A program made the position numbers and the translations under genes. Below the pieces are notes generated by a model. It was not told the DNA's origin, did not search any database, and saw only the letters and a program-made list of their open reading frames with translations. DNA of 64,000 bases from Lepus europaeus (taxonomy: Eukaryota; Chordata; Mammalia; Lagomorpha; Leporidae), in NCBI RefSeq assembly GCF_033115175.1, contig NC_084838.1, positions 91,291,968 through 91,355,967 on the forward strand, read 5' to 3'. Each line of letters begins with the position of its first letter. Within the stretch, counting starts at the first letter, position 1. Below are positions 1,205 through 51,850 of the stretch, in pieces.

Positions 1205-3100
1205 ATATTGAAATAGGATTTAAAATAAATAAAGACAAATACCACAATACTTAATTTCTATGTACCCCACAGGTTCCTGTATGTTTTGCACACAGGACAG
1301 AGGCCTCAGGGACTGGACAGGATGCCCTCTAGATCCCTCACCCCAGCTGGGACAGGCACCAGAACTGTGATGAGGGGCAGAGTCTGGCTGTGGGCGGGGC
1401 TGCGAGCCTGCACATGGATGATGAGGGTCCAGACCCAGCAATGGGGACAGCTGCCCCAACCCTAGGCCTGAGAGAAGAGAGGAGGAGGTGTCCTCTGACC
1501 CAGGGAGGGCCTGTCTCCAGGCCTGGGAAAGCCGCCCCACCCTCTCTCCTGCCGTCCCCCTGTCCCGCTGGGGCAACAGGCAGCCAGCACCAGAGGCCCA
1601 AGCAGAGCAGAAGGAGGAGGCAGCCTCTAGGACCAGCTCAGCCCAGACAAGGGCCCACCACGACCTCAGAGGCCCCCGGCTCACATGCTCTGTGAGGACG
1701 AGAGCATGGGTGTGGTCCTGTTATTCCCACCCAGAGAGTGAATGCATCTCCTCCAGCTGCTGTGAGGTTTCTGGCGCTGTCATGGAGGCCGTGGTGGAGA
1801 CACAGCCAGAAGAGGCCCGAGGCCTCCAGAGCTGCCACTGCAGGGAGGGATGTGTCAGACCAAAGGGCCCAAGAATCAGATGACAGGACTATGTGCTCTG
1901 CAAAGTCACAGTAGGTGATGGCTGGCAGGTGACTGGATGACCCTGGGGAGGTGACAGGTAGTTTGAGGGTGAGGAGGAGGCAGTCAGAAATGCTGGGGAG
2001 AACATTCCAAGCAGAGTAATCAGGTGGGATAAAGACCCTCAGAGTTCAGCTTCTTCATCCAGGGGAACTAGGGCAAGATGCCTGGAAGGGAGTTGGGGTG
2101 GGTGGGAAGGGCCAAGTGCAAAGGGCTATCCTTGTGCCCGTAGCAACCCTAGGGAAGGCAGGGGACATGCATGATGTCACCACAGGTCTTCTTTTCTGGA
2201 TACAGGATTTGGTGAGGATTCCCAGGAGTGAGTCCTCTATAGCTCACATTGAGCTGACACGATGCCACCAGGTGGCGATCGAGAATAGTGAGTTCAGCCC
2301 CAGAGCTCCAGCCCATAAAAGAACCAACCACTTGTGACCCTACGTGCCTGTGAGAATGGCATGAGCACTTGGTGGCACACCCACGCCTGCCTCTCACTGT
2401 CCCTGCTGTGACTATGGATGGGAAGAGTCAAGGAGGGCTCCCTCGAGGAGGTGGCCCCGCATTGCAGACTTACAGATGACAGGGGATCTCTGCAATGCTC
2501 TGCATGTTTCATGGTGCCTGGAAATCTCTTTCATCTCCTATGACGATGCAAAATCCCATGAGCATCCGAGGAACCCAGTTTTTCATGGAAACGTCTGTCT
2601 CTTTCTGAGAACCACTCACATCCACCTGTCACATCATCTCGCACCACAGCCCGATCTGACCCTTCAGCCAAAGACCTGGTGCATTAAGTACGGAGCCCAG
2701 TCTTGTCTGAGAGTGGTGCACAAGCAGCAGCCCTGCCCTTGACCCATCTCGGCTCTGGGTCATGATGGGCAATGATGGTCATGAACCAACGCTCCCTGTC
2801 CAGGCTGAGGCTTGATTTGATTCTGGCACATTGTTAAGATCTCTTTCTAACTCCTTCTAGCTCTAGTGGGTAACAAGGCACTCTAAGACATGAGGAGGGT
2901 GGGGAGGGCACATTCTAGTGGGAGCACAGGACATAGACAGTGACCCAGAAATAGGTCAGAGAAGGCTCCCTGAGGAAATGAAGCATGAGCAGGGACATAA
3001 AGACAAATGGGAACTAATCAGATAGAAGCAAAGGGACTGGCAGGAGCGAGCAGGGACCTAATGAATACACCAGGATGACTGTTAACTCCTGCACTGAGCA
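1205..3100. other. Intergenic, mostly unique sequence
   Basis: Moderately GC-rich DNA between two repeats. Short open frames occur on both strands, without conserved peptides or paired splice sites. Apart from the 2,256-2,420 duplicate I see nothing I can name. Confidence 0.5.
2256..2420 (+). repeat. Diverged duplicate of reverse-complemented 16,870-17,041
   Basis: Shared words such as GATGCCACCAGGT and CTCTCACTGTCCCTGCTGTG lie in the same order as on the minus strand of 16,870-17,041. Identity is roughly two thirds by eye. With the 1-113 pair this suggests an old inverted duplication whose left copy is interrupted by about 2.1 kb. Confidence 0.5.
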
Positions 3101-3540
3101 ATGAACAAAGTGATTGGCTGTGCAGCCTTCAGTTTTTCATTGCATAATGCAGTACCTGAGAAGCTACTTACAGGAAGAAGGTGTGGTACAGCTCATAGAC
3201 TTGGTGGCTCACAGTCCAGGACCCAGCAGGCCTGGTTACACCTATGTGAGATGGGAGGAAAGCAGGGGCAGAGCACATGAGGAGGAAAGATCATGTGTGG
3301 AGTCAGGAAAAAGAGAGCATGACTATGCCCCTCTCTCTTATAACCAGCTCTCTCTCAGAACCACACTGCAACAGGTGCCTATTGACCTAAGGACCTCCCA
3401 CAAGCCACCTCCTATAACATAATTGGATTATGGTACTTCTTGGAACCATAAACTGATGACTTTGGAGATTAATTATCTCATAAGTTCAGGCACATATCTT
3501 ATTCAAACCTCAGCAGGTACTTTGAGGTTTGTGAGATGAC
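3100..3540. repeat. Unclassified old interspersed repeat
   Basis: Sequence with TTCAGTTTTTCATTGCATAA, a clinically ordinary but repeat-like 'lost tail' structure and an AACCTCAGCAGG end resembles mammalian MER/LTR remnants. I cannot assign the family. 6,020-6,330 has a similar character. Confidence 0.3.
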
Positions 3541-3559
3541 ATTGAGTCAAAAATGCTGA

Positions 3560-3812
3560 GTCTGCAATGCTGGCATCCCATATGGTCGCAATGACCAGAG
3601 CTGGGCCAATCATAAGCCAAGAGCCAAAAGCTTCTTCCGGGTCTCCCATGTGGGTGCAGGGGCCCAAGGACTTGGGCCATCTTCTACTGCTTTCCCAGGC
3701 CACACCATAGAGCTAAATCAGAAGTGGAGCAGCTGGGTCTTGAACTGACGCCAATATGGAATGCTGGCACTTCAGGCAGTGGCTTTAACTGCTACTCCAC
3801 AGTGTCGTTCCC
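3560..3812 (-). repeat. CSINE, old subfamily
   Basis: Reverse-oriented copy without its A-tail; GTGTCGTTCCC marks the head at the right end. Confidence 0.85.
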
Positions 3813-3842
3813 GCTTTGTATTTTTTAAATATTTATTTATTT

Positions 3843-3962
3843 GGGGCTGGTGCTGTGGGGAAGCAGGTAAAGCCACCGCAGATAAAGCTCCTGGTTCCTA
3901 GCTTCAGATAGGCCCAGCACTGGCCATTGTGGCCATTTGGGGAATGAACCAGCAGATGGAAG
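3843..3962 (+). repeat. CSINE with internal deletion
   Basis: The head (GGGGCTGGTGCTGTGG) joins directly to the 3' half (AAGCTCCTGGTTCC); about 150 bases of the middle are missing. Confidence 0.85.
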
Positions 3963-4252
3963 ACTTATTTATTTATTTGAGAGGCAGAGTTACAGACAGA
4001 GAGGGAGAGACAGATCTTCCATCCACTGGTTCACTCCCCAGATGGCTGCAATGGCCACTGCTGCACTAGGCTGAAGCCAGAAGCCAGGAGCTCCATCTGG
4101 ATCTCCCACGTGGGTGGCAGGGACCCAAGTACTTGGGCCATCCTCCCCTGCTTTTCCTGGGCCATTAGCAGGGAGCTGGATCAGAAGTGGAGCAGGGATG
4201 CTGGTCTTGCAGGCGGTGGTTTTACTTGCTACATCACAATGCAGGCCCCTAC
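3963..4252 (-). repeat. CSINE, old subfamily
   Basis: TTTATTTATTTGAGAGGCAGAG tail complement at left, GCAGGCCCC head at right. It abuts the preceding plus-strand copy tail to tail. Confidence 0.9.
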
Positions 4253-4451
4253 ACACTGTTTTTCAGAGCAAAGAGAATGCTTCCTAAATCATTGTATGAA
4301 GTTAGTCTCAAACTGTTTCCCAAGCCAGAAAAAGGTAGTACAAGAAGCAAAACTACAAATTATTATGCCTTATAAATATGGATGCAAAAACCCTTCACAT
4401 CCTTAGTAGGACTAAGCTGAATTCAGCAGTGCATATAAAAAGAATTCTAGA

Positions 4452-4812
4452 GTCGGCGCCGTGGCTCAATAGGCTAATCCTCCGCCTTGCGGCGCTGGCA
4501 CACCGGGTTCTAGTCCCGGTTGGGGCACTGGATTCTGTCCCGGTTGCCCCTCTTCCAGGCCAGCTCTAGGCCAGCTCTCTGCTATGGCCCGGGAAGGCAG
4601 TGGAGGATGGCCCAAGTGCTTGGGCCCTGCACCCCATGGGAGACCAGGAGAAGCACCTGGCTCCTGGCTTCAGATCAGCGCGGTGCTCCGGCCGCGGAAG
4701 CCATTAGAGGGTGAACCAATGGCAAAGGAAGACCGTTCTCTCTGTCTCTCTTTCTCACTGTCCACTCTGCCTGTCAAAAAATAAATAAATAAATAAATAA
4801 AATAAAATAAAA
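4452..4812 (+). repeat. CSINE, young subfamily
   Basis: Full-length with an (AAAT)n tail. A target-site duplication AAAAGAATTCTA flanks it (from 4,438 and from 4,810). A 13-bp CCAGCTCTAGG duplication lies inside at about 4,558-4,575. Confidence 0.95.
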
Positions 4813-4869
4813 AGAATTCTACACCATGGGCAAGTGAAATTATTCTCTTGATATAAGACTTGTTTAACT

Positions 4870-6010
4870 ATCTCAAAATCAAGTAATCTACCACATCTAT
4901 AAGCTAAGGAAGACAAGCACATGATCCAATAATTTTATGCAGAAGAATTATTTGAGAAAAATCAACATCCATTTGGGAAAACACCCATAGAAAAGTGAGA
5001 ACAGAGTGTGACGTCCTCACCTTGATGAAGATCATGTGGAAAACAAACCCGAAGCTGACACACTTAACTGTGAACAGAAAGAGCGTGTCCCCCAGAAGAG
5101 GAAAAAGCAAGAGTACGTGTTCCCATGCTCTAATTCTACACAGCGTGGCATTTCCAGCCAATTCAATCACAGTAGAAGAGGAAGTAAAAGGCACATGATT
5201 TGGGAAGGAAGAAATAAAATTGTTATTTGCAGATATCAGGACTGCCCATGTGGAAAGTGCCAAGGTATTTTTATATTTAAAAAATCACTTCCTACAAGTA
5301 GGGAGTATGTTTACCAGGATTTCAGAATAAAAGATGAAAATAGAAACACAAAATCAATTGCATACCTGTATGCTAGTGCTGAACACATGGACCTAAAAAT
5401 TAAAATTCTAGTACCATTTACAATGGTTCACAAGGGAAATACTCTGATCTAAACCTCACATAATGATCATAATATTTATATACTGATACTGCAGCGCTAA
5501 GATGAATTAAACAAAGATTTAACTAAATGAGCAGATTGACCATGGTCATGGATTTGAAGACTCAACAAAGTAAAGATGCCAATTGCACTCAAACTGATAA
5601 ACAGGTTTAATGCAATTGCTTTAAGCATCTAGCTAGATATTTTTAATTCTAATTTGTGGTAATGCAAAGGATTTAGAATAGCAGTGATTTTTAAATAGAA
5701 GGATGAATTTGGAGGAAGGAATCCACCTCATTTCAATACTTACTACGTAGCTACAGTAACTATTAATGTCTATGAGGGAAAGACACAGAACTCAAACTGA
5801 TAGACTCACAATGAAAATAAGAACAGAATTCAGACTAAAGTACAAAAGCATTCCAAGGATCACTTTAATACCACTTATCACACGTTGTCTGCTTTAAGAA
5901 AACCATTTGTATAACCATCAGCAAAAACTTGAACCTTGGTCTAAATGTAACACGGTAAACAAAAATTAACTCCAAAGGCGATCATGGATAAATCTTCCTG
6001 TTCAGCTTTC
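4870..6010 (+). repeat. LINE-1 ORF2 fragment
   Basis: Nucleotide and decayed peptide similarity (AFxTKSIAYLY, IKILVPFTMVHKG) to the distal reverse-transcriptase part of LINE-1 ORF2. It has many stops and is inactive. Confidence 0.75.
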
Positions 6011-6569
6011 CATCGGTATAACTAAACACCTCAAGCAGGCTAACTTCATCAAGGAAAGAGGTCTATTAGATTCACAGTCTGGAATGTCACAGCTCAAGAT
6101 TGCAGGCCAGTGGATTGGCCTCTAGTGATGTCACTTTTCCCTGACAGTCCTGATGTGGCACAGAGCACAGAATGTCAAAGGGAACACTGTGCACGTGTCT
6201 GTGTCTGTCTCACATTTCCTGTAAAACCACCAGGATTCACCATGGGGGTTCCTACCATAACAACCTTCATTCATTCAAACTATTTTCCAAACATGCTTGC
6301 TACCTGTAAAGCCTGTAACTAGGTTGTCTCCAGCCTCTCAGTATCAACAGCATGACGATTTTGGGGATGAGTTCAGGAGCTAACTCCTAGTCAAACCACC
6401 TCAGTCTTTCAGACACCTTCATTTGAGACACGGACCAGAAGTTAAGACTACACCAACAACACTTCAAATTTCCCACAAAAAAGTTCATAAACACAAAAAC
6501 TGATGAAAAAGTTTGTTTTGAAAACAAACGCTTTTGTCCTTGGAATAACCATGTTAAGAAGAAAAGCAA

Positions 6570-6935
6570 CCTAAATACAAGAAGGAAATATTTTAAAGTA
6601 CATTCCAGATAAAGGACCAGTATCTAGCATATATGAGGAACTCAACATCACAACAGGAAGAAGAAAAAAAAAAAAAAACCTAACCCGTTAGAAAAGGGGT
6701 AAATGACAAAAACACACAGTGCGGTAGACACGGAGTAAATAAGATACTGACATCATTGAACATTAGGGAAATGAAAATGAACCCCCATGGTGAGATGATG
6801 GATCACCCTACAGCTACGAAAACGAGTACAAAGCGTTGCCAACATCAAGTGCAGGCAAGTTTGCAGAGAAACTGCTTCACAGCTTTGCTGGTAGTGGGAA
6901 TGCAAAAGGACCCAGAGGTCCTTAAAGAAATAAGT
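6570..6935 (+). repeat. LINE-1 3'-end fragment
   Basis: Typical LINE-1 3' sequence (ATTAGGGAAATGAAAATGAA, GTGGGAATGCAAAAGG). It ends at the left edge of the palindrome arm. Confidence 0.75.
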
Positions 6936-6939
6936 ATTC

Positions 6940-8050
6940 CTTCTGGGCAGGGAATGTAAGGGTGAGCCTGGAGCACCTTGTTGGCAGAAGGGACCCATCA
7001 AGGAGCAGACACTTCAGTAGGGCCCAGAGGCCAACGGAAAGCCACTCCCACCGGCCTCAGCCGGAATAACGGCAAAACTAACTCCAAAGGTCTGAATCAC
7101 GGTGGAGATGGTAAAATTCAAAACTGCAGAAGGCTGCTAAGAAAAACTCAGCCTTTGTTGGACGAGAGGGAACCGAACGAGGATTGTGACAACGGTAAAT
7201 GGATGGAAGGGGACGCGGGTAAATGGAAGGAAGGGGACCCGGCATCATCCCTGCTCTTTCCGCAGAAGACCCCAGGCACCAGGGCCGGGGTCTCCTTCCC
7301 GACCCCCTGCTTTGCCCTCGGCCCACTCTCAGCGCAGCGCACACGGGCGCCCCCGAAACACCCACCCGGGGCTCCTCCACTAAGACCCTGGCGGCTCCCA
7401 CGTCACTCACCGGGAGGAACGCGGCCTCACCACCGGCCCAGGGACCCCGCCTCCGCCCCCACGCCCTCGCCCCAGGCCGGGCAGGGCCTCCAGGCCGGGC
7501 AGGGCGGGAGGAGGGCGGCTCCTGTCTGGTCCCACCCGCACCGCACTCTCCAAAGGGGGCGACTCGGAGACCCAGAGAAACCAACCGGGGAGAACCCGCG
7601 ACGCCCTGGGCCACCACGCCCGTCCTCGCCACAGGAAAGACGCCGACTCCTGGGACACTGCTCAGAGACCCCAGTCCCCACGCGGGAGAGGGCAGGTGCA
7701 CGGCGGCAGCTCACCTGGAGCAGCAGCGGCCGGGCCGGCACCACGCGCGCTCCCGGGGCCAGCGGACTCCTGGCCCGGAGGCTGACGCGGGCTCGCCGAG
7801 ACCGCGGCCCCGGGGGCCGGTGTGCAGGGCCCACGCGTTCTGGATCCGGCCCCGGAGCCTCGCCTGGGTCTGCCGGTGAGGGTGAAGCGGCCGGGAGCCT
7901 CCGGAGCCCCCTGGGCCCGGCCGGGAGCGCAGTCGGGGTTTCTGAGGTCGGTGGCGTGGAGGACAAGGGTCTGCCCATGGCAGTTCAGTGACGCGAGCAT
8001 CTTGTGGGCCACGCTCCTGAAACCCCGGGTCAGAACCAACTGCGGGGAGA
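6940..8050 (+). repeat. Left arm of a ~3.2-kb GC-rich palindrome
   Basis: This arm matches the reverse complement of 9,060-10,190. The core at 7,180-7,870 is about 95% or more identical by eye to the reverse complement of 9,295-9,965, with only scattered substitutions and small indels. The outer 240 bases (from TTCTGGGCAGGGAATG on) and the inner 180 bases are homologous but more diverged. The arm is CpG-dense from about 7,260. Long open frames exist in every frame on both strands, as expected from base composition. On the minus strand a consensus donor (CTCCAG|GTGAGC) lies at 7,714. Confidence 0.9.
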
Positions 8051-9059
8051 CGCAGCCCGGTACGGCGCCACCAGGAGCCCGCCCACCTGTGTGCTTCTGC
8101 CCCAGCTCCGCCCAGCATCGCGGCCGCACCCCCTCCGTGCACACCGCGAGCCGGTCTCACCAGCACGGTCCTCCGCGGTGCTGACCGCCTGGGGCTGCGG
8201 GCTGCGGGCCTCCCCCCAGGCAGGGGCCGCGAGCTCTGAGCTGGGAAGGTGCAGGGTGCAGGGCTCCCGGAGCCCCGAGTCCGCTGGTAGCCGGCTGGTA
8301 GTCCGCTGTCTGCGGAGCGCTCGCCCTGCCCTCGGGCCTCGGGGCCGGAGACGGTGGGAGAGGCGCCGGCGTCCTCGGGGAGGGCAGGCAGGGAGGAACG
8401 CGGTCCTCTGTCCTCGGAGCCTGGGCTCCGGAACCCGGCTGCGTCCTCGCCCTGCCTCCTCCGTCGGACTCTCAGACACAGCAGAGACGCCGCCCTCAGC
8501 GCGGACGGGCTCACCCCGGCAGGGCGCGCTCGGATTCGCCAGGACGGGAGCCTGGGCGTCGCGCAGCACAGAAGCGCTCGCTCCCCGGGGCCTTCAAAAG
8601 CCTCAACAGTCATGGAGGAGCCCGACGACCTCCCGATTCGGAGGGCTGTGCCTGGGGACAGTCTCCACATCAGAAATTAAAACTGAGGAATCTGAAGTGT
8701 ATCAACTCATTTTAAGATAACCGTAACAACTAGAATATAGGGCAGCATAAATAACCTTTTAAAAAATATAACTGCATGTTTCTGAGGAAAACAAATACTG
8801 AGAAAAAAAGGAAACCATAGAAACCTAAAAATCCTGTGGGCCGGCTGGCGCGGTAGACGGCGGGCGGCGTGAGGCGGCTCGCGAGGGCGCGCGGCCGGCA
8901 GTGGTGGGCGGAGCGCGGCCGGCAGTGGTGGGCGGAGCGCGTACGTCAGTGATGGGTGGAGCGCAGCCGCGGGCGTAACGTGACCCCCAGGTGGGCGGGG
9001 CCACCGTGGACAGGGTCGCACGGGGAGGGCGGGGGCGGGGCGGGCGCACCGCTGTAGGC
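8051..9059. other. Palindrome spacer: two CpG-rich flanks and an AT-rich centre
   Basis: 8,051-8,660 and 8,825-9,059 are CpG-dense; 8,665-8,820 between them is AT-rich. The right flank has GC boxes (GGGCGG, GGGGCGGGGC), 24-bp repeats and a CRE-like TACGTCA. Together these suggest a bidirectional CpG-island promoter. I recognise no coding sequence. Confidence 0.6.
8891..8962 (+). repeat. 24-bp tandem repeat x3 in CpG island
   Basis: Three units run at 8,891-8,914, 8,915-8,938 and 8,939-8,962. The first two are identical and contain CAGTGGTGGGCGGAGC. The third has diverged and holds TACGTCAGTGATGGG. Each of the first two carries a GC box. Confidence 0.85.
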
Positions 9060-10190
9060 GGGGCTCCGGCTGTTGGTTCCGAACCGGTGTCGCATAGGGT
9101 CCCGGAGGATGCGCGCCTGGCTGAGCTGGCCTGGGCTGACCCGGGCCTCTACGCCATCCACGAACCCAGGAAGACGGGTTCGGCTGCCGCGACGGTGGTG
9201 GTCCCTTCAGAAGCTCCAACCGCCCTTCGGGCAGAGCCCAGTGCGTTCCGGAGGCTGGCGGCGGCTTCATCATCATCCGGAGACCCAGATGAGGCTCCGG
9301 GGCCGGATCCAGAACGCGTGGGCCCTGCACACCGGCCCCCGGGGCCGTGGTCTCGGCGAGCCCGCGTCAGCCTCCGGGCCAGGAGTCCGCTGGCCCCGGG
9401 AGCGCGCGTGGTGCCGGCCGGGCCGCTGCTGCTCCAGGTGAGCTGCCGCCGTGCACCTGCCCTCTCCCGCGTGGGGACTGGGGTCTCTGAGCAGTGTCCC
9501 AGGAGTCGGCGTCTTTCCTGTGGCGAGGACGGGCGTGGGGGCCCCCGAGTGCCCCAGGGCGTCGCGGGTTCTCCCCGGTTGGTTTCTCTGGGTCTCCGAG
9601 TCGCCCCCTCTGGGGAGTGCGGTGCGGGTGGGACCAGACAGGAGCCGCCCTCCTCCCGCCCTGCCCGGCCTGGAGGCCCTGCCCGGCCTGGGGCGAGGGC
9701 GTGGGGGCGGAGGCGGGGTCCCTGGGCCGGTGGTGAGGCCGTGTTCCTCTCGGTGAGTGACGTGGGAGCCGCCAGGGTCTTAGTGGAGGAGTCCCGGGTG
9801 GGTGTTTCGGGGGCGCCTGTGTGCGCTGCACTGAGAGTGGGCCGAGGGCAAAGCAGGGGGTCGGGAAGGAGACCCCAGGCACCAGGGCCGTTCTGCGGAA
9901 CGAGCAGGGATGATGCCGCGTCCCCTTCCTTCCATTTACCGTTGTCACAATCCTCGTTTGGTTCTGTAGCATTCTCCAAAGGCTAAAAATGTTGTGTGTG
10001 TGTTTTTTTAATAACCTTATGCAGTGTGATTCAAGCCATTGCAGTTGTTTTACTCAAATTATTCTGGCTGAGGCCGGTGGGAGAGGCTTTCCGTTGGCCT
10101 CTGGGCCCTGCTGACAGTGCCTGCTCCTTGATGGGTCCCTTCTGTCTACAAGGTGCTCCAGGCTCACCCTGTACATTTCCTGCCCAGACA
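9060..10190 (-). repeat. Right arm of the GC-rich palindrome
   Basis: This is the inverted partner of 6,940-8,050. It carries the same CTCCAG|GTGAGC donor at 9,437/9,438, here on the plus strand, so the arms resemble two divergent first exons. A second donor-like TCTCG|GTGAGTG follows near 9,752. From 9,970 to 10,050 this arm has AT-rich sequence with a TG run that differs from the left arm. A degraded minus-strand CSINE abuts the end. Confidence 0.9.
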
Positions 10191-10194
10191 TAGA

Positions 10195-10472
10195 CTGGGG
10201 GGGGGGGGGCAGAGACACAGAGAGAGGTCTTCCATCCACTGGTTCACTCTCCAGGTGGCCACAAGGGCCAGAGGTGGTTGGATCAGAAGCCAGGAGCCAG
10301 GAGCTTCCTCCGGGTCTACCCCGTGGGTGCAGGGACCCAAGCACTGCTGCTTTCCCAGGCACATTTGCCGGGAGCTGGCTCAGAAGTGGAGCAGCCAGGA
10401 CTAGAACCGGTTCCCCTGTGGTGTGCCGGCACTGCATGCAGAGGCTTCACCTATGCCACAGCACTGGCCCCC
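10195..10472 (-). repeat. CSINE, old subfamily, G-run at tail
   Basis: Reverse-oriented; the tail side is a run of about 13 G. It adjoins the outer edge of the right palindrome arm. Confidence 0.85.
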
Positions 10473-10575
10473 AAATTTCTCTAAGGACCCCAGGGTCATT
10501 TTACATTCCCAGTATCAGTAAAGTGTGAAATAGTTTCTCCGTAACTTGACAGCATTTGATGATGACAATTAAAAA

Positions 10576-10899
10576 AAAATTTTTTTTTGACAGGCAGAGT
10601 GGACAGTGAGAGAGAGACAGAGAGAAAGGTCTTCCTTTGCCGTTGGTTCACCCTCCAATGGCCGCCGCGGTTGGCGCACCGCACTGATCCGAAGGCAGGA
10701 GCCAGGTGCTTCTCCTGGTCTCCCATGGGGTGCAGGGCCCAAGCACTTGGGCCATCCTCCACTGCACTCCCTGGCCACAGCAGAGAGCTGTCCTGGAAGA
10801 GGGGCAACCGGGACAGAATCCGGTGCCCCGACTGGGACTAGAACCCAGTGTGCTGGCGCCGCAAGGCGGAGGATTAGCCTAGTGAGCCATGGCGCCGGC
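10576..10899 (-). repeat. CSINE, young subfamily
   Basis: Full-length reverse copy with a target-site duplication TGATGATGACAATT (from 10,556 and from 10,902). Confidence 0.95.
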
Positions 10900-10949
10900 T
10901 TGATGATGACAATTTTAAAAATTTTACTCATTCTTGGAGACTGTGACAT

Positions 10950-11222
10950 AGTAAGCTAAGCGTCTGCCTGTGGCTCTGGCATCTCATATAGGCACCGGTT
11001 CGTATCCTGGCTGCTCCTCTTCTGATCTGGCTCTCTGCTTATGGCCTGGAAAAGCAACAGAGGATAGCCCGGATGCTTGGGCCCCGGCACCCATGTGTGA
11101 GACCTGGAAGAAGCTCCTGACTCCTGGCTCCAGCCCAGGCCATTGTGGTGAATTGGGGAGTGAACTAGCAGATGGAAGACCTTTCCTTCTGTCTCTCTAA
11201 CTCTCCCTCTCCAAGAAATAAA
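10950..11222 (+). repeat. CSINE, old subfamily
   Basis: Diverged copy ending CTCCAAGAAATAAAATC. Confidence 0.85.
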
Positions 11223-11639
11223 ATCTTTTAAAAAATTTTATTCCTATGAATGGCAGCGTAGCGATACAGTATCTCCCCATGAGGTGAATTTTCATTTCCC
11301 TGATGTCTAATGATGGTGAGTAACTTTTCTTCTATTTATTTTACAGCTGTATATGCCTATTGGTGAAATGTCGATTCATGTCATTTTCCCCTTGTCAAAC
11401 TGGTTGGATTGTTTTTCTGTTGGGAAATATTTAAAACATTTTCTCCTACTCTTTATATTGTTTTTTTTCCTCAACATAATTATTCCCAGAACAAAAGAGG
11501 TTTCTTTCCATCTTCAAAAATTCTACTTTATTAGTTTTTGCCTTTATGGATGGTGCCTTTGGTCTAAAGCCTAGAGTATTATTGGTGTAGCCTTAAATCC
11601 TGGTATATTTCTCATATGTAAGTGTCTGAAAATTACTCT

Positions 11640-12010
11640 TGTTTTACCATGATTTGGCCCTGAATCATACAGGTGGTTAGTAGCCCAAACTAATGACATT
11701 GAGAGAGTAGAAAATCCAGTTACAGTGCTTTCAGGCAGTGAGCTGGGAAATGTTTTGATTGGATTAAAGTCATTATGACAGATACCGCAATATGGTTGTG
11801 GTGGCTTTGCAAGGAGAAATTAGAGATGTAGACCTGTGGGAATCCTTTCTCTTGACATATGATGCTCTTTTGCCTGCCAGGAATCTGTCAGCAAGAATGC
11901 TCTCACAGGAGAGCCAAACCAGATCACAGAGCTAACAAACCTCATTCCTTTATGACATTTGTGTGTCTCAGGTTATTTTGTTATAGCAATGAAAAGCTGA
12001 ATAATACAAA
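11640..12010 (+). repeat. MaLR-type solo LTR
   Basis: The end sequence TCAGGTTATTTTGTTATAGC ... CTGAATAATAC is typical of MaLR LTRs. It sits inside antisense LINE-1. Confidence 0.65.
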
Positions 12011-12051
12011 AAATTTTTACTTCTGCATTTAAGTCCATGATCAATTTTGAA

Positions 12052-12377
12052 TTATTTTTATTTATTTGAAAGGTAGAGTTACAGAGAGGGAGGAAAGGAT
12101 AGAGACAGAGGGAATGAATCTGCCTTCCACTGGTTCATCCTTCCTAGATGGCCACTTCAGCTAGAGCTGAACCAGGCTGAAGCCAGGAGCCAGGAGCTTC
12201 ATCAGGGTCTCCCATATGGGTGGGCAGGGGCCACAACACTTGGGCCATCTTCTGCTGCTTTTCCCGGGCCATTAGGGAGCTGGATTGGAAGTGGAACAGC
12301 CAGGACTCGAACCAGCACCCACATGGGATGCCAGTGTCTCAGGTGGTGGTTTTATCTGCTATGCCACAATGTTGGAC
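12052..12377 (-). repeat. CSINE, old subfamily
   Basis: Full-length reverse copy inside antisense LINE-1. Confidence 0.9.
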
Positions 12378-13234
12378 CCTTAATTTTTGTTTACTGTGTT
12401 ACATGTAGATCAAAGTTCAATTTTTTGCTGATGGCTATACAAATGCTCTAGCACCATTTGTCAGATAGCGAACAGCTATATGATAGATGATAGAAAACTA
12501 GTCTTCCTCCACTGAATTGGTTTTATATTTTTGTCTAAACTCTGCTCATCATTCTAGTGTGGGTCTGAGTTTATCTGCTTAGTTGATCTTTGTGTCTCTC
12601 ACCCCACAAACATTGACAATCAATTACTGTAACTACCTAGTGAGTCTTGGAATGAGGTACATTCATTCTTCCAAGTTCATCCTTCTGTTTCAAAATTCTT
12701 GTTAGTTTTCTAGATCCTTTGCATTTCCATGGCTATATTAGAATAATTTTGTTTATTTCTACAAAAATATCTGGCTGGACATTTAAAGAAATTGCATTAA
12801 ATCTGTGTATCAATTTGAGGAAAATTAAAATCTTTACTGTGTTGTCTTCCAACCCGTGCACAAAATACATCTGCTCACTCATTTAAATTTCTGTCTTCAC
12901 TCAGCAGAACTCCACAGTATCATTTTAAAATTTATGAACACTTTGTTCGGCTTAGGTCAAAATATTTCCCTCTTCAAACTGTTGTAAACAATGCTGTGTT
13001 TTTACCTTTTATGCCCCTGTGGTTATCACTATTATACAGATGTGCAGCTGGTTTTGTATTTGTTTTTATCATGTATCCGAGACCTTGCTGAACTCACTGA
13101 TATTTGTAGGAACTGTTTTCTTGTTTGTTTGTTTTTATAGATAGATACCTTGGGATTTTCCACATTGGCAGCCCTAGTATCTGCAACTGAAGTTTTCATT
13201 CTTCCCAAATCATGTGCCTTTTTTTTTTTTAAAG

Positions 13235-13547
13235 AAAAAAAATTATTTTGAAAGTCAGAGTTACAGAGAGAAAGGGAAAGAGAGAAAGAGAGAGAAAGAT
13301 CTTTCACCTGCTGGTTTACTCCCTAGATGTCTGTAACAGCCAGGTAAGCCAGGAGCCAGGAGCTTTTTCTGGGTCTTCTACTTGGGTGGCAGGGGCCCAG
13401 GTACTTAGGCCATCCTCCACTGCTTTTCCCAGGCCATTAGCAGGTAGCTGATTTGCAGGTGAAGCAGCTGGGACACGAACAAGCACCCATATGGGATGCC
13501 AGCACTGCAGGTGGCAGCTATACCTGCTATTCCATAGTGCCAGCCCC
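13235..13547 (-). repeat. CSINE, old subfamily
   Basis: Full-length reverse copy (AGTCAGAGTTACAGAGAG ... GTGCCAGCCCC) inside antisense LINE-1. Confidence 0.9.
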
Positions 13548-13944
13548 AATTGTATACCTTTTGTTTGCTCTTCTGCTTTGACTGAATTGGCTAGAAATGC
13601 CAGTGCTATGTAGAATTAGAGCATGAGCACGGATATTCTTGCATTATTCCTCTTCTAGGGGGAAAAGTGTCCTTTCTGTCCACAGCGTGTCAGCTTTGGG
13701 TTTGTTTTGCAGATGCTCTTCATCAAGGTGAGGAAAGTTCTTCCTGTTCCCAATTTTCTGGGTGTGTTTTCCCAAACAGGTATGGAAATTTTCTGTATTA
13801 TTGATAGGAGCATGTGCTTTTCTTCCATAGCCTGTTAATGTGGTGGGTTACTTGATTTCCCGATAATGAACAAGCTTGCGTTGAAAGGATAACCGCACTG
13901 GGTCAGGGTGTTAATTCCTTTTATTGCATCACTGAATTCTTTCT

Positions 13945-14259
13945 TAATTATGTATTTAAGAGGTAGTTACAGACACAGAGAGGGAGAGAGTAATAAAGAT
14001 ATTCCATCTGCTGGTTCACTCCCCAAATGGCCGCGAGGGCTGGAGCTGTGCTGAACCAAAGCCAGGAGCCAGAAGCTACTTCCAGGTCTCCTGCGAGGGT
14101 GCAAGGGTCTCAAGCACTTGGGCCATCTTCTACTGCTTTCTCAGGCCATCAGCAGAGAGCTGGATGCAAAGAGGAGCAGCTGGGACATGAACCTGCGCCC
14201 ATGTGGGATGCCAGTGCTGCAGGCAGAGGCCTAGCCTACTATGCCACAATGTCAGTTCC
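13945..14259 (-). repeat. CSINE, old subfamily
   Basis: Full-length reverse copy inside antisense LINE-1. Confidence 0.9.
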
Positions 14260-14444
14260 TATATCACTTAATTCTGCTTACTCACTATGTGAAGGATTTT
14301 TATGTCCATATTTATAAGGCATACTGATTCATAGTTTTGCTTTTTGTACTGTCTTTTCCTGGGTTGGGAATCAGTGTAGTATTAGCTTCATTCAATGAGT
14401 TAGGAAGCACTCGGTTTTCTTTGCTCTGAAAGACGATGTGTAGG

Positions 14445-14758
14445 GGCCGGTGCTGTGGCATAGCAGGTAAAGCCGCAGCCTGCAGTGCCTGCATTCCATA
14501 TGGGTGCCAGCTCAAGTCCTGGCTGCTCCATTTCCGACCCAGATCTCTGCTTCGGCCTGGAAAAGCAGTGGAAGATGGCCCAGGTACTTGGGCCCCTGCA
14601 CCTGCATGGGAGACCCAGAGGAAGTTCCTGGCTCCTGACTTCAGATCAGTCCAGCTCTGGCCATTGCAGCCACTTGGGGAGTGAACCAGCAGTTGGAAGA
14701 CCTCTCTCTCTCTCTGCATCTGCCTCTGCCTTTCAAATAAATAAATAAATAAATCTTT
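14445..14758 (+). repeat. CSINE, old subfamily
   Basis: Full-length, (AAAT)n tail, near-consensus head GGGGCCGGTGCTGTGG. Confidence 0.93.
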
Positions 14759-15346
14759 TTTTTAAAAAAAGTGTGTAAAACTGAAGAACTGAAGTTACTT
14801 CTTGGCTTCACTCTGCTCGTATCACTGCTGAGATGATTCTCTCCAATGCAGAAGCCTTGTCATGCTGTTTAATCCACTCTGCCAGTCTCTGTCCTTTACT
14901 GGTACATTTAGATGGTTTAGATGTAATGGAATCAATGACATAATAGAGTCTTGGTCAGGTTTTTACGTCCTGTTTCTTCTTTGTTTCTGTTTTCTATATT
15001 TGGTCTTCCTATGGCTTGCTTGAATATATTTTTACAATTAGATTTGTAATTCTCTGTAGTGTTGTTGAGCACATCTTTTTGCCTGCCTTGTTCAGTGGGT
15101 GGTCTCGGTATTACATCACATACACATCATTATACCATTCTGCTAGCATAGACAATTTACTGCTGCATGTGAAACACAGGCACCTTCCCACCTTTGCGTT
15201 TCAAACCTCTCCCACTCATCTCCTGCTTCTGTTATTTAAGACAACAGAGTTATCTGAAATAATTCCTGTGTTCATATTTAGAACCACCACAAACAGTGTC
15301 ATAGCTTTCGCTTAAACCAACTAAGTTAGAAAACTCAAGAGGGCAG

Positions 15347-15622
15347 GGGCCAGTGCTGTGGTTCAGTGGGTTAAGCAGCAGCCTTTAGTGGTCGCATTCC
15401 ATGTGGGTGCTGGTTCATGTCCTGGCTGCTCCACTTCCCATGCAGCTCCCTGCAAATGCACTAGGAAAGCAGTGGAAGATGACCCAAGTGCTTGGGCTCC
15501 TGCACCCATGTGGGAGACTTGGAATAAGCTCTGGGCTCCTGGCTTTGGCTTGGCCTATTCCTGGACCTTGAGGTCATTTAGGGAGTGAACCAGTGGATGG
15601 AAGCTTGCTCGCTCGCTCTCTG
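15347..15622 (+). repeat. CSINE, old subfamily
   Basis: Full-length head, tail lost. Confidence 0.88.
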
Positions 15623-16021
15623 TAACCAAAGAAAAACTAAGACAGCAAAGAAAGTCTATACCATATTAATCTATATTTTGCCTGTGGCGTTCTTTCTTCC
15701 TTTAAAAAAGAAATGTGTATATATCCTCTTGTAGGGGCTTGCTCCTTTCTGTATTTTTTCATTTACAAATATACCTAATTTTAATATCAGTTTGTTTTAT
15801 ACCTGATAGAAATAAGCACTTCTGGGTTAGGACCCTGCCCAGCAAATTAAATACCGCAGCATGTTTTTCAGTGTATCACTCTAAATGCAATAGGATATAC
15901 TGGAAAAGTTAAAAGTGAAATCACATTTATTTTAGTTGACGCCTGACTCATCATGCAATCCATTAAGATACATATTTTTCATTTTATTGTGATTTAGTAT
16001 TCTAAAGTATTTTATGTACTT

Positions 16022-16326
16022 TAAAATATTTATTTATTTTGAAAAGCAGACAGACAGAAACAGAGATCTTCCATATGCTGGTTCATTCCCTCAGCGCACC
16101 CAAGATCCAGGGCTGCTCCAGGCTGAAGACAGAAGCCCAGAACTCAATCTGGGTCTCCCATGTGGGCGGCAGGGAGCCAGCTACTTGAGCCACCAGCTGC
16201 TGCCTCTCAGGGTGCTCATTAGCAGGGAGCTGGATTGGAAGCAGAGGTTGGGCTCGTACCCATCCACTCCAGTATGGGATGTAGGTATACCAAGCAGTGT
16301 CTCAACTGCTGTGCCAAACCCCACTC
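16022..16326 (-). repeat. CSINE, old subfamily
   Basis: Reverse copy between LINE-1 fragments. Confidence 0.87.
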
Positions 16327-16449
16327 CCAGGATTAGTTTCTTACTCTGCAGTGACTTTAGATTCACATGAGTTGTGAGGAATAAAACAGTGGGGGTCTTA
16401 TGCCCTCGCCATCCAATCCCCCCCATGCTTTCTTCAGATACACAACTGG

Positions 16450-16860
16450 CTGGTGAGCATGTGCAAAGCTGCTCCAGTCTGCAGTCATTAGGGAAATGCT
16501 GTCAGTCGGAACCACGTAAATCACAACCACAATGAGATGCCACCTCACAGCATTAGGACAGCTGTTAAGTACAATTATGTGTTGGTGAGCATGTGGGGGA
16601 ATGGTACCCTCACATGTAACTGGTACAAATGCTAAATGGTGCAGTTGCTATACAATGTGTGGACGTTCTTCAAAAAGCTTTGCATGGAATTATTACTGTA
16701 TGGCCCAGCAGTTCCTCCCCTAGATGTTTACCCCCAAAGAACTGAAAGCAGGGACTCATGCAGATACTTGCCACACAGGCATGTCCCTTAGCAGCACTAT
16801 TAAAATTAACCAAAAGTAGAAACAATGCATGTCCACCAACAGATGGGATAACAAAAATGC
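16450..16860 (+). repeat. LINE-1 3'-end fragment
   Basis: Contains CACAATGAGATGCCACCTCA, TGTGGACGTTCTTCAAAAAG and GCAGCACTATTAAAATTAAC, all hallmark LINE-1 3' words. Confidence 0.8.
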
Positions 16861-18580
16861 GCCCCTCCCCCCGCAGCCGCAGCAGGGGCAGTGAGTGGCA
16901 GGTGTGGCAGGAGCACCGTGTGCAGGTGCCAACGGCACAGGCACCTGACGCTCATGAGGGCTTCTGTCCCAAGGACTGGGGCTCCAAGGGCTGGATTCCT
17001 TCTGCTTTGTCCCTACCTGGTGGCATCTTGTCAGCTCCACAGTACAGAGGCCTCAGCCCTGGGGACCTGCCAGCCCAGAGCCCCCAGACCCTGACGGACT
17101 TCTATAGGCTGCGGGGAGCTCCCGAGGAGCCCAAGGGCCACGTGTGGAAGACTGGAACTGGGCCTCAGCCTCCACCAGCCTCTGCCGGCCTGCCCATGCG
17201 CTGCCCGGGCTCCCAGAGCCCCTCTTGGCACACACAGCAGCCACCCTGCTCCTTTCGTGGGTGAGGATCTCATGCTGACGGGAGCAGTGGGGTGTCTGCA
17301 GCGCCTTTGTCATATCCTGGGCCATCAGCTCATAGATGCCATTGTCTGCAGGTGAGCTTCACCTTCTCTCCCACGAGGGCAGCTCCTGCTCCCAGCTGAA
17401 GCCCCAGCCCCGCACCCCTGCTGTCTTCGGGCAGCTCCTGCAGCTCCCTGCGCCACCTGCTCCACTGTCAGCCGTTCCCCGTGTGCCCTGAGCCCTTCCA
17501 GCCTCTGGCTTTCTTCTGCAGCTGTCGGCCAGTTCTCCCCTGCGCCCCTTGGGGCCTCCGTGGGCACAGTCCGTCACCATCCTCACTGCCACTCTCCAGG
17601 TGGACACATGGCTGGGTCGCTGGGCCCTGGCCCCTCTCTTCTTCCTCGTTGGCTCCATGTCCCTGTCCCTCTGTCCTCCCTGTGGTCACTCAGGGATGAG
17701 GAGATGTAGGACCCTGAGCATGGTGAGGCCCAGAGGTCTCAGCAGCCTCACTCTCACGGCTGTTTCCTGCTGCCTTCCAGGGCCCCGGCCTTTCTCTCCC
17801 CTCCATCTCCTCCTGCAGTCCCTGCTCCCGTCTCACGGTTTCCTGGCCTGGCAGCTGTGCACTGGGCTGAGGGTCAGTGTGGTCGTGCACACAGCCGCTG
17901 TCTTCCTCGGGTCCTCTTCTCCCTCACTGCGAGGAGCAGCTGCCTCGAGTTTGGTGTCAGGCACTCGGGTAGGGTCAGGAGTCTGGCTGTTCCCTGCTCT
18001 TTTAAGAAAGTGGCCGAGGACCCCAAGGGGAGACCAACCTTGGTTTCTGTTCAGAGCCACCAGGAGAGGGTCTGCCATGATGGAGAAGTGGCCCACACCT
18101 CGGGGACATCAGACCGCTGCAGCAGTGTACACCCAGATCACCCAGGGCATCCCAAGGGCCACCGGCACTTGTCTCAGGCTGTTGCACATCACCAGCTGAT
18201 GAGACATTTTGGGAACGGCAGCCAGCCCTCAGGCTGCAAAGGCTCTGCCACTCTGATGGCTGACCAGAGTCTGGTGGCCCCAGTGACTCCTCAGAACCCT
18301 GAGGCATGTGCCGTGTGTGAGGGAAACAAGGGCCCGGCTTCCTGGGTGGACCATCAGTTATGCCCAGGGAGGCTGGGTGGCCCGCTGGGCTCTAGATACC
18401 GTGTCCCCGGCTCTGCACCTCCAGCTGATGTTGGGATGAATAGTTGCTGCTTCCTTGTAGCTGCCCACAGCATTTGCTCTTTCTCATCTTACTCTGGTTT
18501 TAGTGTTTCCCTTCTTAGCATATCAATTACATACCTTTTTACAATTTTTGAATAGTAAAATTGACTTTTAAAAACAAACC
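16860..18580. other. Unique GC-rich block, no gene recognised
   Basis: On the minus strand, short frames rich in Glu/Gln/Leu (for example SQRLEGLRAHGERLTVEQV and LQEEMEGRE) appear in different registers with stops between. This could be a decayed coiled-coil-encoding pseudogene or chance. There are no introns or poly(A) I can define. It contains the inverted duplicate at 17,057-17,168. Confidence 0.35.
17057..17168 (-). repeat. Inverted partner of window start (1-113)
   Basis: See the entry at 1-113. On this side the homology continues more weakly: 16,870-17,041 reverse-complemented resembles 2,256-2,420, sharing GAGCTGACA-GATGCCACCAGG and a CTCACTG-CCCTGCTG stretch. Confidence 0.85.
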
Positions 18581-18590
18581 CAAGTTTACT

Positions 18591-18919: not shown

Positions 18920-19079
18920 CAAGTTTACTTTCAAGCAACACTATACTTCCTGGGCAGTACAAATACCTCATAACAGAGTATTTCCAATTTTTCCTTATAA
19001 GATGCTGTTGTCTCTCATGAGTTTATCTAAGCTAGTTACCCAATACATTATTGCTATTCTGATTTAAATACATGTGTTA

Positions 19080-47674: not shown

Positions 47675-48587
47675 CTGGGCGGGGGGAGAAGAGGCGACAG
47701 GCACCATGAGGCGCCACCGGGCAGGGGAGGGCACGGGCTGGGTCTGGTCCCTGCTCTTTGCCGGGTGGCCTTCAGGAAGCTCAGAGCGTCCTGCGGACAA
47801 CGATGGGTGGCTGGATGTCCCCCGTGGGACTGTGGGGACGATGAAGGGACGTGTCCAGCCTCCCCAGGCCTCAGTGCCTTGGGGGATTTTGTGCTGTGAA
47901 ATATGGTAAAGGGTGGCACAACCCAGGCTTAAGGTGGTCTGTGCACCCTTCACAGCAGTGAGTCTCCCTTTAGCTGGGGCACTGGCACCGAATTTGGGGA
48001 ACTTGAGCGACTCACGAATTGGTTATTAGCTGATGGTTAGCTTCCTGTCTGGCACTCTTGGGGAGCTCGGGTCCCAGCATCTCTGGTCTCAGAGCACCTT
48101 GCAGCATTGCCCAGAAGGCCTCACGGGACCTCCTGGCATGCGCATACATGGGCTCCTGGCTGCCTGGAGCCAGGCCAGTGCCATCCCAGTGACCACATGT
48201 CCTATTAACAAGGCCAGGAAGCTGTGTCCATGCTCCCCTGCCCCACTTCTAAGGGCAGTTGCTGCATCCCTACTGAGCAGACCTGGTGGCATGGGCCTGA
48301 GAACTGGGGTGGAAGGAGGCATCCCCCGCTGGGGGCGGGGCAGGGGGAGGCAGGCAGGGAGGGCCTGGAGCTTCTGAGGCACACCGGCCGCCCCTGCCCA
48401 GGCCTCGTCTCTGCACCCAGGACAGGCAGGCTTCCCTCAGCCTGCAGTGATTTCCCTACCCCAGGGAAAGGAGGTCCAGAAACTCAACCCCGAGCCCTTG
48501 CCCAGGTCTGGGGAAGCTGTCCCTGCAGCCCTCCCATCCCCCTCTTGTCCCTGCCGGCGCAGCCCTCCATGCGGCAGGTGCGCCAAC

Positions 48588-48802
48588 CTGTGCTGGAGGC
48601 CACGACCTTGAGCTGCTGCACCAGGGGGTTCAGGAGCCTGCCCGCCTTCAGCTTGCTCTTGCTGGGTTTCCTCCGGCGGCCGGTGGGGGGCGCTGTGTGG
48701 AAGAAGCCCACGCTGGGTGGCAGGGGTTTGCCCAAGCGGCGGTACAGGGCCTCGATCTCCTGCTTCTGCTGGCTCTGCAGCTCCGAGATCTCCTTGAGGT
48801 GC
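48588..48802 (-). CDS. WNK2: WNK2 exon: coiled coil and basic GRRRKPSKSKLKAG segment
   Basis: This 215-bp exon begins after CTTCTCAG. Its first base completes the lysine codon started in the previous exon. It encodes HLKEISELQSQQKQEIEALY and RRLGKPLPPSVGFFHTAPP, then the basic stretch TGRRRKPSKSKLKAGRLLNP and LVQQLKVVASST. The heptad-like first part continues the coiled coil. The donor is ACAG|GTTGGC, a weak match to consensus. It is supported by phase and by the known human junction ASST-G-HL. Confidence 0.95.
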
Positions 48803-49305
48803 CTGAGAAGGGGAGACAGGGGGCAGGCAGGTGGGCTACGCTCAGAAGGGCCACAGCGGGGCTTTAAGTGGCACGGTCTGTTTCTGTCTGAGCCATGTGC
48901 CAGGCTGGGGGCCTGCAGCATCAAAGTGCCCAACAACACAGGTAAACCTACAGACTGTCACCTTTCCAAATATGCTTACAACCAAACCCTACACATCAAT
49001 ATATGGGTGAGGAGAGGGACAGCGTGCATCTGATTAACAGGCAAATCTGTCACTCCGCCACACACAGGCGGTGAACGGGGTGCTTTGTAGGACCACCGGA
49101 GGGAGGCAGGCAGGGGTCCCTGCTAGGCTCACTTGGGGATGAGTTGGCTGCACCCCTGCCTGCCTCCCTTACACCCTCCTACACCTGGGTGTGGTTGGTT
49201 CCCATGGGGCCTGCAGTCCCTTCTCTCCCCCAGCCCATCCCCCACTCTGTCTTGTCTTGCTGGGAAAATAGGCGATTTATATGGTTGGGAAAGAAGAACA
49301 AGTTC

Positions 49306-49660
49306 TGGCCGGTGCCACGGCTCACTTGGCTAATCCTCCACCTGCAGCTCCGGTACCCTGGGTTCTAGTCCTGGTTGGGGCGCCGGTTCTTTCCCGGTTG
49401 CTCCTCTTCCAGTCCAGCTCTCTGCTGTGGCCCGGGAAGGCAGTGGAAGATGGCCCAAGTGCTTGGGCCCTGCACCCTCGTAGGAGACCAGGAGGAAGCA
49501 CCTGGCTCTTGGCTTCGGATCGGTGCAGCGCACTGGCCGTAGCAGCCATTTGGGGGGGTAAACCAACAGAAAGGAGGACCTTTCTGTCTCTAACTCTGCC
49601 TGTCAAAAAAAAAAAAAAAATCTCCTCTCTAATTAAAAAAAAAAAAAAAAAAAAAAAAAA
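49306..49660 (+). repeat. CSINE, young-type, double A-tail
   Basis: Near-complete copy with two A-runs separated by TCTCCTCTCTAATT, and a target-site duplication GAACAAGTTCT on both sides. Confidence 0.93.
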
Positions 49661-50994
49661 GGAACAAGTTCTGATTCTACCTCGTGTATCCTCCACAATG
49701 GTCAAGTCTGCTTTAGAAAGATAACTTCCATTAAAAACAACCAAATAAAAAATAACACAACCCTGAGGGTTTTCTTCCCTACAAACACCGGGGAGAAATG
49801 GAAAACTGCTGTTTGCATCCGACTGGCGTTCAAAAGGAGTAACATGTCAGATGGGATGCTGGGCAGAGGGACTTCAGGCAGAGCTGTGGTTCCCGAAACC
49901 CTGCTGCAACACGACCCCCACACCGGAGCCCGCCTGCCCACTGAGCTGCCCAGCCTGCTCCCCGCAGGTGCCCTGGGTTTCCAGCTCTGGAAAGCAAGGG
50001 TGGGTCAAGCACGGGGCTCCTGAGAAACCCTGGTGGTGAGGAGGAGGGGTCCAGTCTCCTGTGTCCTAACGGGGAGTCCATGGGATCCCTATGCAACACT
50101 TGGGATCCGTGGGCCACTGTGTAGCTGATGCCACCAAGTGCCCTCAATTCTCAACTGAGGCTTAGGAGCTCCCTTTTGAGCAGACTACTGGTTTCCTGGG
50201 AACCATCCCCAAGAGGCTGTGCCCAGGGACCCCTGCCCCTCAGGTCCAGGTGCTGCCCACCCACCCTCAACTAAAGCCACGCTGGGAACGGCTGCTGGGC
50301 CTGCCTATTGAGTGCCCCAAACCAGTAGCCTATGGTGCTCCCCATTCTCCGGCAGAGAGACAAGCCATCCTCCACGCGCTGCACCAACCTCCTCCCAGGC
50401 CTAGCCAGCACGTCCTGCCCTCTCCGCGCCTGGGCCCCAAAGAGACGGCCCTCTCAGGAGGTCCACCACTTGAGCCCGCTCCCACGGAACGAGCTTGATG
50501 GCTCTGCCGTCCCTGGGGAACTCAGCTTTAGTCACCCCTTCAGAACCACAGTGCTGCCTCCCACGCCCACCCTGAGGACAGCTCAGCTCTGCATCTCCGA
50601 GAATGGGATGAATACGGGCCGTGTGACACAGACATATATACACATACAGCGAGAAAGTGTGCATGTGTGTGCTGGAGAGAAGGCACAGGTCCCATGATTC
50701 CCTAAGACATCTCTCTGAGGGCCACCGCAGCAACAGCTCAGCTACAGGCTGAGGGCAACTGTGCAGCAGGGAGACGCAGCCCCCAGAGCGGCAGGGGCCA
50801 GGCAGAGCACAGGGCAGCACCAGTCCAGGCCTGAGGACACCCTGAGGGTGGGACTCTGCTCTCAAGGCCACAGGAAGAGCCCAAGCCAGGCTCACCACCA
50901 CCCAGGCCCCTAGCTCACCACTCTGAGCCCACTTAATGCTGCCCAGTGGCTTCCCCCGCCCCTGGAGCCCGCGCCTCTGCTCCCACCCACGTAC

Positions 50995-51665: not shown

Positions 51666-51761
51666 CTTAGGAAACAAGCAGAAATGAGGACAGTCCAGGG
51701 GAGCCCCAGCAGAGAGCAGACCCACCCCCCACCCCCAGCGGCCGAGCTGAATCACCCTTAC

Positions 51762-51850
51762 CTGGGTGGCCCCGGGCGCCACGGGGGAGTCTGAGGCCAC
51801 CTGCCCTCCATCACTGTCGCAGCCCAGCGTGTTGCTGGAGGTTGACTCTG
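51762..51850 (-). CDS. WNK2: WNK2 small exon (...SDGGQVASDSPVAPGATQ)
   Basis: This 89-bp exon follows a GTCCCCACAG acceptor and ends CAG|GTAAGG, phase 1 in and phase 0 out. The peptide begins AESTSSNTLGCDSDGGQ and continues VASDSPVAPGATQ. It matches the human segment containing DGRQVASDS. It is serine-rich linker sequence with no recognised domain. Confidence 0.9.

What the first reader, a model, noticed from the sequence alone, without database searches (positions are those of the whole stretch)
6940..10190. Imperfect 3.2-kb palindromic CpG island with outward splice donors
Two arms of about 1.1 kb in opposite orientation surround a spacer of about 1 kb. The arm cores (7,180-7,870 and 9,295-9,965) are about 95% or more identical, while their inner and outer ends are clearly more diverged. 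That pattern suggests arm-to-arm gene conversion in the core, or one recent duplication joined to an old one. Both arms carry the same CTCCAG|GTGAGC donor pointing outward, so it looks like a duplicated first exon and promoter arranged head to head. The window contains no recognised gene on either side that would use it.
Basis: partly seen in the sequence, partly recalled or inferred. Interest (0 to 1): 0.8.

Follow-up and report, generated by a model that had tools for sequence, protein, structure and literature searches.

The report
Old inverted duplication, recently homogenised core
A lagomorph genome, probably rabbit or a close relative, carries an old mirror-image duplication of part of an uncharacterised gene beside WNK2, and one GC-rich stretch of the two copies has apparently been copied from one arm to the other more recently, a known process that is unusually easy to see here.

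Summary
The palindrome is real and larger than reported. In-register homology continues outward to 2217 and 17067 at about 57-82% identity, and one C repeat (a SINE) sits at the same site in both arms, so the duplication is old but later than that insertion.

Inside it, 7287-7861 and 9291-9876 match at 565 of 575 aligned bases, with sharp edges; exon and intron parts are equally alike. A predicted rabbit protein, LOC103348436, gives a three-way test. Upstream of the core the left arm sides with it (28 sites to 1); inside the core the left arm sides with the right arm (3 to 0). Arm-to-arm gene conversion is the best explanation.

The "duplicated first exon and promoter" idea fails in part: the shared exon corresponds to the third exon inferred for LOC103348436, the promoter-side sequence is not shared, and no match to the upstream exons was found on the right. 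A known kind of structure; modest interest.

The parts
2217..8046 (-). Left arm of the inverted duplication
   Evidence: Collinear inverted matches to 9066-17067 after masking C-repeat-like segments; 2465-3560 itself shows no match above shuffles
9066..17067 (+). Right arm of the inverted duplication; longer, with C-repeat insertions
8047..9065 (.). Spacer, 1019 bases, not shared between arms; holds the left copy's exon 1-2 homologues and, on its right side, a cluster of GC boxes
   Evidence: No homology above shuffles between 8051-8336 and 8833-9059; tblastn of P0001; seven GGGCGG on + in 8862-9043
7287..7861 (-). Left high-identity (converted) core
   Evidence: 565 of 575 columns identical to 9291-9876
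9291..9876 (+). Right high-identity (converted) core
7715..8016 (-). Exon homologous to residues 99-199 of LOC103348436 (third exon inferred for it), left copy, ending in CTCCAG|GTGAGC
   Evidence: tblastn; sequence read; donor
9112..9437 (+). Right copy of that exon; 5' half diverged with a length difference that shifts frame, donor kept at 9437|9438; the start given is only an ATG seen by eye, the real exon start is unknown
8161..8286 (-). Probable exon 2 of the left copy (homologous to P0001 residues about 54-98), donor CTG|GTGAGACC
   Evidence: tblastn; sequence; aligns only with gaps to P0001
8515..8602 (-). Probable exon 1 of the left copy (homologous to P0001 residues about 5-33); has an in-frame stop where P0001 has residue 7
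   Evidence: tblastn, sequence
6942..7070 (-). Second, smaller high-identity patch, left
   Evidence: 121 of 128 identical to 10059-10188, next to a stretch at 54 of 94
10059..10188 (+). Second, smaller high-identity patch, right
3972..4252 (-). C repeat present at the same site in both arms, left copy
   Evidence: 220 of 276 identical, shared junction with the neighbouring unique block
14440..14748 (+). The same C repeat, right copy
7270..7287 (-). 18-base stretch inverted relative to 9873-9890 at the outer core edge
   Evidence: coordinates read
48586..51848 (-). Two recognised exons of WNK2 (48586-48804 and 50988-51848); context only
   Evidence: and tblastn

Best explanation
In a lagomorph ancestor, after a C repeat had inserted, a stretch holding one exon, the following intron start and several kilobases downstream of an uncharacterised gene (relative of rabbit LOC103348436) was duplicated in inverted orientation next to itself, without its upstream exons and promoter. 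The arms drifted apart and took up different C repeats. Much later, intrachromosomal arm-to-arm gene conversion copied a tract of about 0.57 kb (exon end, 5' splice site and intron start), and probably a 0.13-kb tract, from one arm to the other. The CpG island probably starts the left-copy transcript. The right copy keeps the donor and has its own GC-box cluster upstream, so it may start a short divergent transcript. Shown: the inverted duplication, its extent, the core and its edges, the three-way incongruence. Inferred: conversion as the mechanism, lagomorph age, promoter activity. Unknown: whether either copy is transcribed or coding.
For: Collinear inverted homology 2217-8046 / 9066-17067. 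Core 565 of 575, 0 of 10,000 permutations. Flanks drop to 131 of 181 on the inner side and 66 of 86, then 54 of 94, on the outer side. Exon part 145 of 147 and intron part 418 of 426, so coding selection does not explain the identity. Three-way test with P0001: upstream of the core L=P 28, L=R 1, R=P 1; in the core L=P 0, L=R 3, R=P 0 (hypergeometric 4/4960 = 0.0008, computed by hand from those counts). One C repeat at the same site in both arms; five more in the right arm face only 0-29 bases of the left arm.
Against: Only one relative was found, as a predicted protein, without DNA or map position. The 28 upstream sites rest on a gapped alignment of the right arm; the core signal is 3 sites. 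No outgroup or population DNA could be searched. The direct-orientation control was not empty: four matches of 55-58%, E 1e-9 to 0.012, three of them in the GC-rich part, so weak GC-rich similarity alone means little. The arm divergence is itself uneven (57-82%). The core coincides with a CpG island, where mutation can be slower, although the adjoining GC-rich homologous stretch (131 of 181) argues against that.
Confidence: 0.8

Rival explanations
1. The core identity is kept by selection on a shared functional element (exon, splice site, intronic regulator), not by conversion.
For: The core spans an exon end and a strong-looking donor inside a CpG island.
Against: The intron part is as identical as the exon part (418 of 426 and 145 of 147); identity falls off abruptly at both ends; the neighbouring half of the exon is 131 of 181; L and R share changes against the relative in the core.
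Confidence: 0.1
2. Two events: an old inverted duplication of the surroundings and a separate recent inverted duplication of the core alone.
For: The core and its flanks fall in clearly different identity classes.
Against: The core sits in register with homologous sequence on both sides in both arms; replacement in register is what conversion does.
Confidence: 0.06
3. Assembly artefact (fold-back read or false duplication).
For: Palindromes are a known artefact class (recalled); no reads could be examined.
Against: Arms differ by 18-43% outside the high-identity patches, five C repeats are in the right arm only, and the core has ten substitutions and an 11-base indel, with a microinversion at its edge.
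Confidence: 0.02
4. The inverted structure itself is selected, for example to co-regulate the two divergent copies or through a cruciform, as proposed for nematode paralogue pairs.
For: Layout like the divergent pairs of PMC1803023: inverted arms, short spacer, high identity near the axis; its Discussion proposes such selection.
Against: Here the outer arms have decayed and the promoter sides are not shared.
Confidence: 0.08

Closest known systems
Divergent inverted-repeat paralogue pairs of Caenorhabditis (PMC1803023; abstract, part 1 of Results and Discussion read)
   Same: Head-to-head paralogous copies, short unique spacer, high identity near the axis; in one C. briggsae case the far ends of the genes have diverged; conversion is discussed as a cause.
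   Different: There the matching arms include intergenic sequence up to the genes; here the matching core is an exon end plus an intron start and the promoter side is not shared.
Mammalian sex-chromosome palindromes with arm-to-arm conversion (PMC8981503, abstract and Introduction read; PMC3723533, start of abstract in a search listing only)
   Same: Inverted arms, conversion, GC-rich arms.
   Different: Those palindromes are large (arms can exceed 1 Mb), more than 99% identical, on X or Y; this one is small, mostly decayed, and beside WNK2, which is autosomal in human (recalled).
Patchy interlocus gene conversion between adjacent duplicates (review PMC3966223, abstract and part 1 of its section 4 read)
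   Same: Tract length within the reported range (12-2,958 bases in C. elegans pairs), tracts that include introns, adjacent inverted paralogues.
   Different: Nothing essential; other lineage.

Membership tests
Interlocus (arm-to-arm) gene conversion in an inverted duplication | Two paralogous copies in inverted orientation | tested here: met
Interlocus (arm-to-arm) gene conversion in an inverted duplication | Tract of high identity with sharp ends inside older divergence | tested here: met
   0 of 10,000 permutations; flank identities
Interlocus (arm-to-arm) gene conversion in an inverted duplication | Phylogenetic incongruence between tract and flanks | tested here: met
   28:1 against 0:3 with P0001; one relative, protein letters only
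Interlocus (arm-to-arm) gene conversion in an inverted duplication | Arms more alike within a species than between species | not testable with these tools
   no lagomorph genome could be searched
Mammalian palindrome of the X/Y type | Arms above 99% identical along their length | tested here: not met
   arms about 57-82% apart from the high-identity patches
Bidirectional CpG-island promoter | CpG island between divergent first exons | tested here: inconclusive
   Island and outward donors present; no transcription data; the shared exon is not the first one inferred for the relative
Protein-coding gene like LOC103348436 | Open, shared reading frame in both copies | tested here: inconclusive
   Left copy matches P0001 in exon 3 with few changes, but has an in-frame stop in the exon-1 match and a gapped exon 2; the right copy shows no match to exons 1-2 and a 44-base length difference in exon 3

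The most novel reading that the evidence does not exclude
The tract sits in the CpG-island part of the palindrome because promoter-associated chromatin directs germline breaks there, so an ordinary promoter-proximal exon and its 5' splice site evolve in concert in two divergent copies while everything around them decays; the two copies would then be functional divergent transcripts with a shared splice donor.
Probability: 0.12. Interest if true: 0.5.

Novelty: new member of a known kind. Interest (0 to 1): 0.3.

Why it matters
It is a compact, readable record of a conversion tract in a small, probably autosomal palindrome: old arms ordered in time against C repeats, a tract with both edges visible, and a third sequence to compare with. 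That makes it a convenient locus for asking whether conversion in lagomorphs targets CpG islands. It does not change any concept.

Tried and rejected
Rfam, gathering thresholds, whole window: 0 matches. Pfam on 10 ORFs, three of them from the palindrome (7711-8676 -, 9058-9441 +, 8979-9986 +): 0 families. PDB search with the 50910-51869 ORF: 0. Protein search with an exon-like peptide near the left window edge: no homologue. LOC103348436 in papers: 0. C9orf129 and FAM120AOS, which I recalled as human neighbours of WNK2: listings only, nothing in them bears on this locus; I do not claim orthology. Considered and dropped: that 8051-8336 and 8833-9059 are homologous (one blastn alignment joined them, but shuffles do not support it); that the palindrome continues through 114-865 or 1198-2216 (no signal); that exon 4 of P0001 is in the window (no convincing tblastn match). 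Within the arms, 2465-3560 against 14760-16820 gave no signal (37 of 60 shuffles reach it). In one search the row 8051-8832 against 8337-9059 compares overlapping stretches and is ignored; the row 114-2216 against 17057-19000 is driven by a C repeat, as one search shows. The repeats at 4454-4811 and 13943-14255 lie in the same gap of the two arms; the left one has its own flanking repeat of about 15 bases, so I read them as separate insertions, not proven. My note gave slightly wrong coordinates for the 18-base inversion; the parts list has them as read.

Full report
What is there. Shuffle-controlled local alignments carry the homology inward to 8046 and 9066 (z 12.7, 0 of 300) and no further (z 0.7, 73 of 300). 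BLASTN of the left side against the right side, with high-copy segments masked (found), gives further collinear inverted blocks outward: 6836-6931/10475-10568, about 5999-6831/11236-12003, 5182-5969/12380-13226, 4812-5199/13549-13920, 4253-4426/14267-14439 and 2217-2464/16823-17067. The same search in direct orientation was not empty: four matches of 55-58% identity, E 1e-9 to 0.012, three of them in the GC-rich part. The stretch 2465-3560 against 14760-16820 shows no signal. The palindrome is thus about 14.9 kb, 2217-17067, with a gap in the outer part.

Identity along the arms: inner exon half 131 of 181; core exon part 145 of 147; core intron part 418 of 426; outer core edge 66 of 86; then 54 of 94; a second patch 121 of 128; then 77 of 94, 465 of 731, 577 of 775, 272 of 367, 137 of 168, 220 of 276 (the shared C repeat) and 145 of 244. 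The best-scoring segment is 565 of 575 columns; its score is 163, and the highest of 10,000 column permutations is 32. The core carries ten substitutions and one 11-base indel. Of the ten, four read CpG in the left arm and TpG or CpA in the right; the number is small and I draw nothing from it. At the outer edge an 18-base stretch is inverted between arms.

Age. One C repeat sits at the same junction in both arms (3972-4252 and 14440-14748), so the duplication came after that insertion. Five other C-repeat-like elements of the right arm (10208-10471, 10580-10899, 10941-11223, 12052-12372, 13240-13548) face only 0-29 bases of the left arm, so they came later. A further pair, 4454-4811 and 13943-14255, lies in the same gap of both arms; the left one has its own flanking repeat, and I read them as separate insertions, not proven. 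C repeats are the commonest rabbit SINE (PMC5568218, passages), and a reviewer's remark printed in PMC3183009 (passages) says CSINE2 was active before the pika-rabbit split. That I call these elements C repeats rests on recall of their sequence. The duplication is therefore most likely of lagomorph age; I give no date.

Gene content. The exon ending in CTCCAG|GTGAGC matches a predicted protein of European rabbit, 'uncharacterized protein LOC103348436' (P0001, 262 residues; the only protein at E <= 0.001 among 4661 candidates; 88% identity over 26% of a two-frame query). tblastn of P0001 on the window places residues 99-199 on 8016-7714 of the left arm, earlier residues on two stretches of the spacer (about 8602-8515 and 8286-8161), and only the later part of the same exon on the right arm. 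The exon borders are my inference from that match and from the GT and AG letters; I saw no gene record. After residue 199 the protein leaves the genomic sequence exactly at the donor, so the donor is used in that model. The left copy has an in-frame stop in the exon-1 match and a gapped exon 2, which speaks against an intact protein. The rest of P0001 was not found in the window. P0001 differs from the left arm too much in exon 2 to be the same locus of the same species; it is a paralogue, or an orthologue if the window is from another leporid. The source is thus a lagomorph, probably a leporid, not proven to be Oryctolagus.

Conversion test. Aligning P0001, left and right over this exon: upstream of the core, 51 ungapped columns give L=P 28, L=R 1, R=P 1, all alike 21; in the core, 49 columns give L=P 0, L=R 3, R=P 0, all alike 46. 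The left arm thus changes partner at the core edge. By hand from these counts (leaving out the one R=P site), three core sites all L=R, when 4 of 32 sites are L=R, has probability 4/4960, about 0.0008. Limits: one relative, protein letters only, gaps in the right arm upstream.

Promoter question. The CpG island spans 7121-8730 and 8741-10010. There is no TATAAA or CCAAT on either strand in 7000-10200; GGGCGG occurs 17 times, seven of them on + between 8862 and 9043. The promoter-side sequences are not shared between arms, so a promoter was not duplicated. If the left copy starts like P0001, its start lies in the spacer. The right copy, without matches to the upstream exons, could use the GC-box cluster. 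None of this is shown by expression data.

Surroundings. The ORF 50910-51869 (-) has 165 relatives at E <= 0.001 among 6658 candidates; among the 120 listed are entries named WNK2 from gorilla and other vertebrates. tblastn of the gorilla entry P0007 finds two exons at 51848-50988 and 48804-48586. The palindrome lies downstream of these WNK2 exons. WNK2 is autosomal in human (recalled), so this is probably an autosomal palindrome.

Comparison. The layout resembles nematode divergent paralogue pairs (PMC1803023: abstract, part 1 of Results and Discussion read). The mechanism is that of mammalian palindromes (PMC8981503: abstract and Introduction read), but the arms here fail the above-99% criterion outside the core. 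The tract size is ordinary by the review PMC3966223 (abstract and part 1 of its section 4 read). No paper in the held library names LOC103348436; I made no other search that could establish whether this palindrome has been published.

Verdict. A new member of a known kind, interest 0.3.

Noticed in passing
1-113 and 17057-17168: Inverted block at 96.5% identity by BLAST (a forced end-to-end fit of 1-105 gave 93 of 105); the left one is cut by the window edge, the right one starts where the old arm homology ends. Possibly another converted patch or a recent duplication running off the window.
   Followed up: partly
about 181-424, +: Exon-like stretch after TCTTGCAG with an open frame to a stop near 341 and AATAAA at 419, seen by eye; a protein search found no homologue.
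   Followed up: partly
7270-7287 and 9873-9890: 18-base microinversion between the arms, flanked in the left arm by AGACCCC/GGGGTCT.
   Followed up: partly
8889-8969: 24-base tandem repeat, 3.4 copies, on the right side of the spacer.
   Followed up: no
21037-21110: ARAGORN tRNA-Arg lies at the head of a repeat copy at 21035-21381; probably the tRNA-like head of a SINE, not a tRNA gene.
   Followed up: no
26344-51869, -: Several open frames that look like further 3' exons of WNK2 (recognised by recall except the two).
   Followed up: partly
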